Below, piece after piece: positions 21,727 through 24,420 of a stretch of DNA of 54,682 bases. The position numbers were made by a program, and so were the translations under genes. Under the pieces are notes generated by a model. That model made no database searches. It was not told the DNA's origin and saw only the letters and a program-made list of their open reading frames with translations. The first letter of the stretch is position 1. Each line of letters begins with the position of its first letter. This DNA comes from a bacterium (lineage in GTDB: Bacteria; Patescibacteriota; Saccharimonadia; Saccharimonadales; SZUA-47): the NCBI GenBank assembly GCA_030427125.1, contig JAUHXF010000005.1, positions 1 through 54,682 of the forward strand, given 5' to 3'.

Positions 21727-21800
21727 TGGGATGTAGCCAAGTGGTAAGGCAGTGGGTTCTGGTCCCATGATCGGGGGTTCGAATCCCTCCATCCCAGCCA
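21727..21800 (+). tRNA. tRNA-Gln (anticodon CUG)
   Basis: Full cloverleaf: acceptor stem TGGGATG/CATCCCA with a G discriminator and encoded CCA, D-arm 'AGCCAAGTGGTAAGGC', anticodon stem GTGGG/CCCAT around loop TTCTGGT (anticodon CTG), T-arm GGGGG-TTCGAAT-CCCTC. U1 and the overall sequence match bacterial tRNA-Gln. A terminator follows at once. Its last 22 bases are repeated at 21959-21980. Confidence 0.95.
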
Positions 21801-21874: not shown

Positions 21875-21960
21875 CGAAATGCCAGTGGCATTTCGCAAGA
21901 CAATCTTCACTTGAAAACTTGTTTTCAAAGTTGAAGTTGCGGGCTCGCTGAAAGCGAGTC
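21875..21960. repeat. Three successive hairpins between att-like copies
   Basis: Hairpin 1: CGAAATGCC-AGT-GGCATTTCG (21875-21895). Hairpin 2: TTGAAAAC-TT-GTTTTCAA (21911-21928) with an outer CTTCA/TGAAG (21905-21936). Hairpin 3: GGCTCGCT-GAA-AGCGAGTC with one wobble pair (21942-21960). All have 2-3-nt loops. They fill the 158 bp between the tRNA end and its partial copy; no ORF is present. Confidence 0.65.
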
Positions 21961-21980
21961 GAATCCCTCCATCCCAGTCA
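21959..21980 (+). repeat. Partial copy of tRNA-Gln 3' end (att-like)
   Basis: 21 of 22 bases equal the tRNA 3' end at 21779-21800, from the T-loop through the CCA position (TCA here). Tyrosine recombinases commonly use this part of a tRNA gene as attachment site, leaving such a fragment at the far end of an inserted element. No integrase gene is visible between the copies or in the window. Confidence 0.75.
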
Positions 21981-22061
21981 TTTATTTCATCAGTATAATC
22001 TTAACGAAAACAGTCAAAAACCTGAATTTTTTGGTTGAAGCAGTAATTGTAGAACGACTTT

Positions 22062-22415
22062 CTATAACTTATTGTATTTTGTCGATACGCCTTTAGATTT
22101 ATTGATAGGATATTTGACTGCATTTTTCTTTAATTTCTGTTCTGTAGCTGCTAGTAGGTCAATATCAAGTGAGTCAGATAGTAGGATTAAATAACTGAAT
22201 ACATCTGCGATTTCGTCTGTTAGCGCTTGTCTATTTTCGTCTTTTTCAAACCAGGTATTAAATACATCTGAGTCAGCCTTCCATTGGAAGCACTCTAGGA
22301 CTTCACTCACTTCAAGTTGAAGAGCGACAGCTAAGTTTATTGGGTCATGAAATTGTGCCCAGTCTCTGTCGTCCCGGAACTTAATTAGCTGTTTTCTTAG
22401 CTCTGAAATAGTGAT
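22062..22415 (-). CDS. MazG-like nucleotide pyrophosphohydrolase
   Basis: A ~117-residue all-helical MazG/RS21-C6-type enzyme that would hydrolyse (d)NTPs to (d)NMP and PPi. Family landmarks: 'RDWAQFHDPINLAVALQLE', the metal-binding 'LEVSEVLECFQW', and 'LTDEIADVFSYLILL' (EIADV). The only canonical start, GTG at 22310, would delete the first helix and one of the metal-binding Glu positions, although the upstream frame is open and clearly homologous back to about 22415. There is no ATG, GTG or TTG there; ATC (22415) or ATT (22409) must initiate, or the gene is translated by coupling. It overlaps the methyltransferase-like gene by ~19 bp and is the last gene of the cassette. Confidence 0.82.
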   Translation of the reverse strand: MTISELRKQLIKFRDDRDWAQFHDPINLAVALQLEVSEVLECFQWKADSDVFNTWFEKDENRQALTDEIADVFSYLILLSDSLDIDLLAATEQKLKKNAVKYPINKSKGVSTKYNKL

Positions 22416-23815
22416 GGCTCGATGTCTCTTTCTGGAGTTATTATTTTGCTAAACTGGACGGCTATGCTTGTAGCCTCTGACTCTGGTATGTTGAATCGAT
22501 TTACGACTGCTTTTATGAAATCTTCATCGATTTCTTTGGTTACTTGTGAGTTTAGTATATCAAACAATTGCTTTAGTTTTTTAGGGTCACTTACTATGTA
22601 GGCGATATGATCTGTCGTAATGAAGTTAACACCTTGTTCTCTACGTGTAGACCTGCTTGTCGTTTCATAAACGCCGTCACCAAACTGTAAAACGTGAAAA
22701 GGTGCTTGTTCTTCGTCCAAATCTTCAGCTTCCAACACATCCTGGGGTGCATAAATTCCACCAAAATATTCACCACCAACTTCAATATTCTCACAATGTG
22801 ACTGTACTACTTTCTCTATAGACTCCGGAGTGGAGCAGGTGTCCGAGCGTTCAGGTATGGCTTGTGTGACCACGAGTTGTCCATATTTGCCTCGACTGGT
22901 CACGTTAATGCCCTGTGCTGCAAACAGTCTTTGTTCGTACTCAGGGATTGTATATCCAAAAAATTCCGGTTTTATTTCGATTAGATCTAGGCCGCCTCTT
23001 ATAAGGTTGGCATACATTTCATTAAGTTCTTTAGAAGCTTCTTTTCTTGTTGCCGGTGCTGGTGTGGCTATATAGAGTCTTCCATACGGGCGCAATAGTT
23101 CATATGCTCTGTCGGCAAATAGGCTGTAATGTTCGTTGTGCCATGGGGGATCAATAACTACGGCATCAAACTTACGCCTAAAACTTGGTGGTATTTCGTG
23201 CAAGGCAGAATATTTCACGGCTCTAGGCCCGATTTCTCTATTGTTCAAATCTCTAACAATTGATTCGTTGATATCCATTAAATATGTCTCAACAAGACCT
23301 TCTGTCAACGCACCAGCATAGCAAACTGTAGGCACACCCAAAGCCATTACTTTAGGAGAAACATAAGAATTATTTATGATAATTCGATGTAGCAGATCAA
23401 CTACGCTGTCCCATGTGAATCGGAACTCCTCATTACCATATCTCTCAACAGGAAGATCGGGTGGATTCGTTTCTAGCTCTTCCTTTGTTGCTTTAAGGGT
23501 TGCCTCTACGTCTTGCGGTCTTTGTGAGCCTTGAAGAGCTAATTCCATTACACCAACGTCAGATACTGTATGCCTAGTTACGTCGCCATCGCCCTGCACA
23601 AGTACGTGGCCGTACTCTTGTAGCAATTGGAGCTCCTCGCTTGTTCTAGATGGGTATACTCCGCCGTTGCGCATCTGTATTATTTCAGCATCACTAAGCC
23701 CTTTACCCCCAGCTGATGCAATAATATTTAGGAGGTTAAGTGTTTCAAAGGCCGCCTGGTTGCGTGTTCTGTCCAGGAATGCACCTTCTTCGAATAGTTT
23801 TCTTTCCGCTGTCAT
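22397..23815 (-). CDS. Winged-helix plus SAM-methyltransferase-fold protein
   Basis: A 472-residue protein not assigned with certainty. Residues ~20-95 resemble a winged helix-turn-helix. Residues ~140-260 look like a Rossmann methyltransferase fold: a degenerate motif I ('VCYAGALTEGLVETYLMDIN', acidic D181) and 'VVIDPPWHNEHYSLF' with a DPPW motif at 222-225. This layout and motif recall N4-bis(aminopropyl)spermidine synthase (DUF43/BpsA) and also N6/N4 amino-methyltransferases, so the substrate could be a polyamine, nucleotide or nucleic acid. The C-terminal ~150 residues are unrecognised. It is the middle gene of a three-gene operon, 5 bp after the kinase gene. Confidence 0.6.
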   Translation of the reverse strand: MTAERKLFEEGAFLDRTRNQAAFETLNLLNIIASAGGKGLSDAEIIQMRNGGVYPSRTSEELQLLQEYGHVLVQGDGDVTRHTVSDVGVMELALQGSQRPQDVEATLKATKEELETNPPDLPVERYGNEEFRFTWDSVVDLLHRIIINNSYVSPKVMALGVPTVCYAGALTEGLVETYLMDINESIVRDLNNREIGPRAVKYSALHEIPPSFRRKFDAVVIDPPWHNEHYSLFADRAYELLRPYGRLYIATPAPATRKEASKELNEMYANLIRGGLDLIEIKPEFFGYTIPEYEQRLFAAQGINVTSRGKYGQLVVTQAIPERSDTCSTPESIEKVVQSHCENIEVGGEYFGGIYAPQDVLEAEDLDEEQAPFHVLQFGDGVYETTSRSTRREQGVNFITTDHIAYIVSDPKKLKQLFDILNSQVTKEIDEDFIKAVVNRFNIPESEATSIAVQFSKIITPERDIEPSLFQS

Positions 23816-23820
23816 ATGGC

Positions 23821-24384
23821 TTATTCTACCGCCACCCTCGTCGCTAATTGTCGTATGGTTTCTACGTTACTGTTAGTGTCCACTTCGGGTGCATTCACTA
23901 CAGTGAGTACGTCGCAGTTAAGCTCGTGTGCAACTTGCTGTACGATTGAAAGTTGATGTTGCTGAATATCATCTATTTCGTCAACGCTTTTCATCACGCT
24001 TTTTCTAGCACCCTGCATATTCCGTTTCTGTACTCTTTCTATGATAATTTCAGGCGGAGCAGTTATCACTACATACCAATCAGGTAGCATTAAGCCTTCA
24101 ACATCCAGTACCGATTGGAGGGTGTCCGAGCTTGAGCGTACCACGTGACTGGACAAGAATAGTGGAGTTAGTTCTTTCATTCTTAATGCTACGCTAGCTA
24201 CTGCTTGTCTTACATCTGGAGCACTATCAACTGAGGCTAACCCATCTTTATCGGTTTGTAGCTGTCGCCCTAGCTCATCACCAAAATTTCGTCTATTTAT
24301 TCGCTCTATTCCTGCAAGCGATTTATCTAATAGATAGTCTTTACCGACTCCAGTTACTCCGGTTACTGTAACTAATCTACTCAT
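23821..24384 (-). CDS. P-loop nucleotide kinase-like protein
   Basis: A 187-residue P-loop kinase. The Walker A is GVTGVGKD (residues 9-16), with Asp after the Lys as in many phage-type deoxynucleoside monophosphate kinases, rather than Ser/Thr. A 'VVITAPPEIIIERVQKRNMQGARKS' region (shown in part) resembles the LID/arginine helix of NMP kinases. It likely phosphorylates a (d)NMP or a related small molecule. It heads the cassette: minus-strand TTGACT-17-TATTGT ends 7 nt before the ATG, giving a leaderless mRNA. Neighbours suggest nucleotide metabolism. Confidence 0.7.
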   Translation of the reverse strand: MSRLVTVTGVTGVGKDYLLDKSLAGIERINRRNFGDELGRQLQTDKDGLASVDSAPDVRQAVASVALRMKELTPLFLSSHVVRSSSDTLQSVLDVEGLMLPDWYVVITAPPEIIIERVQKRNMQGARKSVMKSVDEIDDIQQHQLSIVQQVAHELNCDVLTVVNAPEVDTNSNVETIRQLATRVAVE

Positions 24385-24391
24385 TAATAAT

Positions 24392-24420
24392 ACAATAGTC
24401 CAATATTGCTAATTAGTCAA
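24392..24420 (-). promoter_or_regulatory. Promoter of the kinase-methyltransferase-MazG cassette
   Basis: TTGACT (24415-24420), 17-bp spacer, TATTGT (24392-24397), 7 nt before the ATG at 24384. No operator-like repeat is obvious. Confidence 0.65.

What the first reader, a model, noticed from the sequence alone, without database searches (positions are those of the whole stretch)
22062..24384. Kinase / methyltransferase-like / MazG cassette: candidate undescribed nucleotide system
A compact three-gene operon under one leaderless promoter combines a P-loop kinase with a phage-dNMP-kinase-like GKD Walker A, a 472-aa winged-helix + Rossmann methyltransferase-like protein with DPPW, and a MazG-type NTP pyrophosphohydrolase. 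It lies next to a tRNA with an att-like duplication, the usual site of accessory and defence cargo. A kinase making, a MazG enzyme destroying, and a methyltransferase or aminopropyl-transferase modifying a nucleotide would fit nucleotide modification or nucleotide-depletion defence. The gene content and order are seen; the system-level role is inference.
Basis: partly seen in the sequence, partly recalled or inferred. Interest (0 to 1): 0.75.

Follow-up and report, generated by a model that had tools for sequence, protein, structure and literature searches.

The report
Kinase, transferase and MazG nucleotide-enzyme operon
A small bacterial genome carries a three-gene operon that seems built to break down, alter and re-charge a nucleotide; its middle protein belongs to a rare, mobile family found beside antiviral defence genes in unrelated bacteria, but what it does has not been tested.

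Summary
The three genes are real and co-directional, but MazG is longer than stated: about 115 aa, probably starting at an unusual ATT (22409) inside the end of the middle gene. It is a DCTPP1-like (dCTP pyrophosphatase) protein. The kinase is an orphan P-loop NMP-kinase-like protein. The 472-aa protein is not housekeeping: no other full-length member was found in 380 phylum and 393 order genomes. It belongs to a rare family with the fold of the polyamine synthase BpsA, in which the BpsA motif GDDD is replaced by G[T/V/S/A]P and DPPW is invariant.

Distant relatives recur beside nucleotide enzymes on mobile or defence DNA: a radical-SAM/ASCH/kinase cassette (14 loci), dGTPase fusions (2, one beside CBASS), PUA-phosphoesterase partners (2, one beside Gabija). 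The exact trio is seen once.

Best reading: a precursor-level nucleotide-modification module working like phage T4 gp56 + gp42 + gp1 (hydrolase, modifier, dNMP kinase). A Clover-like nucleotide-depletion defence is the main rival. The tRNA-Gln is an integration site in relatives, but the operon lies outside the repeat pair. I found no description of the family in the papers searched; function is inferred.

The parts
23821..24384 (-). Kinase gene, 187 aa, P-loop NMP-kinase-like, Walker A GVTGVGKD
   Evidence: AAA_18 5.6e-5 (below cut-off), PRK04040 adenylate kinase 5.6e-8 (below cut-off), phrog_761 thymidylate kinase 3.7e-7; no relatives in 380 phylum genomes, phages or plasmids
22397..23815 (-). 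472-aa BpsA-fold protein with G-V-P in place of GDDD, and DPPW
   Evidence: Family alignments A1/A2; model pLDDT 71, pTM 0.67; best PDB matches are BpsA and a P. furiosus relative
22062..22409 (-). MazG-like (DCTPP1-like) NTP pyrophosphohydrolase, about 115 aa, probable ATT start at 22409, overlapping the end of the 472-aa gene
   Evidence: PF12643 3.6e-19; human dCTP pyrophosphatase 1 3.1e-20; start position by homologue alignment
24392..24420 (-). Promoter-like TTGACT-17-TATTGT, 7 nt before the kinase ATG
   Evidence: 9 of 12 matches; not above chance in the region; sequence
21727..21800 (+). tRNA-Gln(CTG), integration site in relatives
   Evidence: recombinase at the tRNA-Gln near CorA in G001 and G009
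21959..21981 (+). 23-nt att-like copy of the tRNA 3' end (1 mismatch)
   Evidence: the operon is outside the repeat pair

Best explanation
A nucleotide-precursor modification module. The DCTPP1-like MazG protein hydrolyses a canonical (d)NTP, perhaps dCTP, to the monophosphate and pyrophosphate. The BpsA-fold DPPW protein transfers a group from SAM (or a SAM derivative) to an amino group of that nucleotide. The NMP-kinase-like protein starts re-phosphorylating the product so that it can be used. Shown: the three genes, their family assignments, the BpsA-like fold with a changed donor-site motif, and the recurrence of nucleotide enzymes beside the middle protein's distant relatives. Inferred: substrates, the group transferred, the order of steps, and that the purpose is accessory or defensive.
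For: MazG is closest to dCTP pyrophosphatase 1 and keeps its acidic motifs. The kinase has an NMP-kinase-like P-loop. The 472-aa family has invariant DPPW and a SAM-type Rossmann fold. A kinase is next to the DPPW gene in 14 cassette loci, and a kinase fused to adenylosuccinate synthetase lies near it in Agrobacterium. T-even phages combine a dCTPase, a dCMP-modifying enzyme and a dNMP kinase to make a modified nucleotide pool (PMC2993671). A MazG-like gene occurs over cut-off in 11 of 41 relatives, so one landing directly beside this gene by chance is roughly 6 in 10,000 for about 950 genes (my estimate).
Against: The trio is seen once. The window kinase and the cassette kinases are not specifically homologous, and no MazG occurs in the other loci. 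A dGTPase, which releases the nucleoside, fits a hydrolase-modifier-kinase relay less well than depletion. DPPW and the fold do not name a substrate. MazG-like genes are common mobile cargo.
Confidence: 0.4

Rival explanations
1. Nucleotide-depletion defence, working like Clover: the hydrolase (MazG here, dGTPase in the fusions) is the effector that empties a nucleotide pool during phage infection, and the DPPW protein and kinase sense infection or restrain the effector.
For: dGTPase fusions over the TIGR01353 cut-off (183 and 175 bits vs 152), one beside CBASS; dNTPase effectors controlled by a partner enzyme are a proven defence (Clover, PMC12265719); one PUA-phosphoesterase form sits beside Gabija.
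Against: The window operon is not in a defence cluster; DCTPP1-like enzymes usually clean nucleotide pools (general knowledge); a kinase has no obvious part in simple depletion.
Confidence: 0.27
2. The DPPW protein is an amino-methyltransferase of DNA, RNA or protein, and MazG and kinase are loosely associated pool-cleaning or salvage genes.
For: DPPW is typical of amino-methyltransferases; weak Pfam N6-adenineMlase match (above cut-off in the fusion relatives); ASCH or PUA-like domains, which can read modified bases, lie beside relatives (PMC7641849).
Against: Repeated nucleotide-enzyme partners in four gene settings; no nuclease partner beside the window gene.
Confidence: 0.2
3. Unrelated cargo left by integrations at the tRNA-Gln hotspot, transcribed together but without a joint function.
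For: Sporadic distribution, hotspot with recombinases in relatives, mobile MazG-like genes, an ATT start for MazG.
Against: Gaps of 5 bp and an overlap, all reading frames intact, one promoter-like site at the front, and parallel nucleotide partners in relatives.
Confidence: 0.1
4. A branched-chain polyamine (aminopropyl) synthase of the BpsA type with passenger genes.
For: Best structural match is BpsA; weak BpsA_C match, 0.0012.
Against: GDDD, indispensable in BpsA (PMC12979288), is absent in the whole family, while ten patescibacterial BpsA-like proteins keep GDDD or GEDD with DPPY; the tree separates the groups.
Confidence: 0.03

Closest known systems
T-even phage modified-nucleotide module (gp56 dCTPase-dUTPase, gp42 dCMP hydroxymethylase, gp1 dNMP kinase)
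   Same: The same three kinds of activity are predicted: a pyrophosphohydrolase, a nucleotide modifier and an NMP kinase
   Different: The modifier has an unrelated fold, the kinase does not match the phage dNMP kinase families as such, and the genes lie in a bacterial chromosome
BpsA, branched-chain polyamine synthase (DUF43)
   Same: Overall fold of N-terminal domain plus Rossmann domain and an aligned DPP motif
   Different: GDDD replaced by G[T/V/S/A]P and DPPY by DPPW; extra C-terminal region with an invariant Ser
Clover (CloA dGTPase + CloB nucleotidyltransferase)
   Same: A dNTP hydrolase paired with a partner enzyme, in the dGTPase-fusion relatives
   Different: The partner is not a nucleotidyltransferase; the window has MazG instead of a dGTPase
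MADS defence system (mad2)
   Same: Residues 175-285 match the mad2 profile at 1.6e-8
   Different: Only a partial match; no other mad protein among the two partners and ten neighbours scanned
DCTPP1 / RS21-C6 dCTP pyrophosphatase
   Same: The MazG protein matches it over its length (3.1e-20)
   Different: Bacterial, ATT start, operon context

Membership tests
BpsA | GDDD motif, indispensable for catalysis | tested here: not met
   LGVP in the window protein; none of 16 family members has GDDD (requirement from PMC12979288)
BpsA | BpsA fold | tested here: met
   Top PDB matches, target-normalised TM about 0.6 over about 320 columns
MazG-like / DCTPP1-like pyrophosphohydrolase | Profile match over cut-off and conserved acidic motifs | tested here: met
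   69.2 bits vs cut-off 27; EVSE and EIAD kept
MazG-like / DCTPP1-like pyrophosphohydrolase | dCTP hydrolysis | not testable with these tools
   Needs an enzyme assay
NMP kinase | P-loop and profile match over a curated cut-off | tested here: inconclusive
   P-loop GVTGVGKD present; all profile matches below the curated cut-offs; structure model failed
T4-type modified-nucleotide module | Pyrophosphohydrolase, dNMP modifier and dNMP kinase in one set | tested here: inconclusive
   Kinds of enzyme fit; substrates unknown
Clover | dGTPase plus nucleotidyltransferase | tested here: not met
   Neither is in the window operon
MADS | Multi-gene mad operon | tested here: not met
   Only a partial mad2 match
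The DPPW family described here | G-x-P motif, DPPW, Y..P.[FY]E, invariant S387, full-length alignment | tested here: met
   separate from BpsA in the tree with full support
Integrative element at tRNA-Gln | Operon bracketed by att repeats with a recombinase | tested here: not met
   Outside the repeat pair, no recombinase beside it

The most novel reading that the evidence does not exclude
A new class of nucleotide-modifying enzymes with a BpsA fold, spread on mobile elements, that partners with kinases, dGTPases, MazG or phosphoesterases to tag or deplete nucleotides against invading DNA; the window operon is a minimal patescibacterial form.
Probability: 0.3. Interest if true: 0.8.

Novelty: new variant of a known kind. 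Interest (0 to 1): 0.55.

Why it matters
If true, bacteria as well as phages use a hydrolase-modifier-kinase relay on nucleotide precursors, and the BpsA fold, known from polyamine chemistry, has been reused for it. The family motif gives a handle for finding such systems, and the dGTPase fusions give a single-protein form that is easy to test. The radical-SAM/ASCH/kinase cassette found on the way is a recurrent mobile unit for which I found no description.

Tried and rejected
Patescibacterial relatives: the phylum hits looked promising (many about 430-470 aa), but most are BpsA-like enzymes with GDDD and often SpeD-like domains or neighbours, and one (L037) is a restriction-type methyltransferase. 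Scans with the single window protein found nothing in genomes or viral contigs; the alignment scan found 11 genomes and one weak viral hit of 145 aa that was not used. Specific homology of the window kinase to the cassette kinases: rejected. The one viral-contig hit for the kinase did not hold up, no kinase-like ORF was recovered there. The kinase has no phage or plasmid relative and its structure prediction failed (pLDDT 36). Programmed frameshift joining the 472-aa and MazG frames: MazG is in the -1 frame, but I saw no classical slippery heptamer near the overlap (inspection), so ATT initiation is preferred. Membership in MADS, Clover and BpsA: not met.

Full report
Observation. Three genes run on the minus strand: a 187-aa kinase (24384-23821), a 472-aa protein (23815-22397) and a MazG-like protein ending at 22062. 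The open frame continues upstream to an ATT at 22409 that aligns with the initiator Met of homologues from related genomes, so the protein is about 115 aa and overlaps the end of the 472-aa gene. A promoter-like TTGACT-17-TATTGT ends 7 nt before the kinase ATG, which makes a leaderless mRNA plausible, but such sites are not above chance in the region. tRNA-Gln and a 23-nt near-copy of its 3' end are present; the operon lies outside the interval they bound.

What the proteins are. MazG: PF12643 at 3.6e-19 and dCTP pyrophosphatase 1 at 3.1e-20, with the EVSE and EIAD acidic motifs kept. Kinase: Walker A GVTGVGKD, weak matches to adenylate and thymidylate kinase profiles, below curated cut-offs where these exist, and no relative in phages, plasmids or 380 phylum genomes. 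The 472-aa protein: only weak Pfam matches (BpsA_C, N6-adenineMlase) and a partial PADLOC mad2 match (1.6e-8). An AlphaFold model from 12 sequences (pLDDT 71, pTM 0.67) matches BpsA, the branched-chain polyamine synthase, and a P. furiosus predicted methyltransferase best in the PDB.

Relatives of the 472-aa protein. Tblastn on plasmids found distant homologues; a profile built from them found 11 genomes. Sixteen members align over their length with invariant DPPW, Y288, P291, E294 and S387. The BpsA motif GDDD is replaced by G[T/V/S/A]P, or GAT in one member. In BpsA, GDDD is indispensable (PMC12979288). Ten patescibacterial BpsA-like proteins keep GDDD or GEDD with DPPY, and a profile comparison aligns the two motif regions (97% probability, 9e-12). 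A tree separates the groups with full support; the window protein is an early, long branch, so its exact place is unsure. No other full-length member was found in 380 phylum genomes or 393 order genomes; one order genome gave a weak partial hit (2e-8, 96 positions) that was not pursued.

Neighbours of the relatives. (1) Fourteen loci in cyanobacteria, alpha- and gammaproteobacteria and a Phycisphaerales genome share one cassette: DUF6932 - HTH/M78 - DUF4186 - radical SAM - DPPW protein - ASCH - P-loop kinase (a few genes are cut off or not recovered at some loci). Five of these loci are on plasmids, four of them typed as conjugative. (2) In Psychromonas and Thalassotalea the protein is fused to a dGTPase that passes the TIGR01353 cut-off (183 and 175 bits, cut-off 152). 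The Psychromonas copy lies beside a CBASS set with a SAVED-HNH effector, the Thalassotalea one beside an Mrr-type nuclease. (3) In a faecal phage-like contig and on an Agrobacterium plasmid the next gene is a PUA-like metallophosphoesterase. The Agrobacterium copy follows complete Gabija genes and precedes a kinase fused to adenylosuccinate synthetase. (4) The window: kinase and MazG. Counting each architecture once, nucleotide or phosphoester enzymes accompany the family in four settings. The kinases of (1) and (4) are not specifically homologous, so the kinase link is an analogy, not shared descent.

Setting of the window operon. In relatives G001 and G009 a serine recombinase lies at the tRNA-Gln near CorA, so this is an integration hotspot in the family. 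The window has CorA and tRNA-Gln but no recombinase next to them, no third repeat copy, no GC deviation and no known defence gene among ten neighbours apart from a weak CorA match. MazG-like genes are mobile: 11 of 41 genomes searched have one over the cut-off, in other contexts such as next to ExoA-like nucleases or a Schlafen-group-3 helicase, and they occur in phages.

Mechanism. The three predicted activities match those by which T-even phages build a modified nucleotide pool: gp56 dCTPase, gp42 dCMP hydroxymethylase, gp1 dNMP kinase (PMC2993671). I therefore prefer a precursor-level modification module (0.40): MazG converts a (d)NTP to the monophosphate, the DPPW protein alters it, the kinase re-charges it. 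The main rival is nucleotide depletion with MazG or dGTPase as effector, like Clover (PMC12265719; 0.27). A nucleic-acid or protein amino-methyltransferase with loosely associated neighbours is next (0.20), then unrelated cargo (0.10); a polyamine synthase is unlikely (0.03). All of this is inference from family, fold and context. Nothing here shows an activity or phage protection.

Novelty and verdict. MazG and nucleotide-kinase domains are already predicted as defence domains without validation (PMC13092281), and ASCH with AAA_17 ATPases is known from (PIN)-GNAT-EVE operons (PMC7641849). I found no description of the DPPW BpsA-fold family or of the radical-SAM cassette in the papers searched, a library that lacks most subscription journals. 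The finding is a real and interesting accessory operon centred on a little-known family with recurrent nucleotide partners, but the trio is a single case.

Noticed in passing
L021-L025, L049-L057: A conserved mobile cassette DUF6932 - HTH/M78 peptidase - DUF4186 - radical SAM - DPPW protein - ASCH - kinase, in 14 loci across several phyla, five of them on plasmids; I found no description of it.
   Followed up: partly
L047:320-2824 and L048:7857-10484: The DPPW protein fused to a dGTPase in Psychromonas (beside CBASS) and Thalassotalea (beside an Mrr-type nuclease).
   Followed up: partly
L103:2909-12491: Agrobacterium plasmid: Gabija, DPPW protein, PUA-metallophosphoesterase, then an AAA_18 kinase fused to adenylosuccinate synthetase and a DUF7002 gene.
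   Followed up: partly
L085:4436-6826 and L089:3176-5138: In two related genomes a MazG-like gene is directly beside a large Schlafen-group-3-type helicase gene (with GIY-YIG and S24 peptidase domains in L085), a possible two-gene module.
   Followed up: no
L027-L036, L042-L046: Patescibacteria carry BpsA-like aminopropyltransferases (GDDD) fused to or next to SpeD-like sequences, in some cases with queuosine-pathway-like genes.
   Followed up: no
L094:582-2840 (G001): At the equivalent tRNA-Gln/CorA locus of the sister species a serine recombinase ends on the tRNA, followed by a nucleoside 2-deoxyribosyltransferase-like gene.
   Followed up: no
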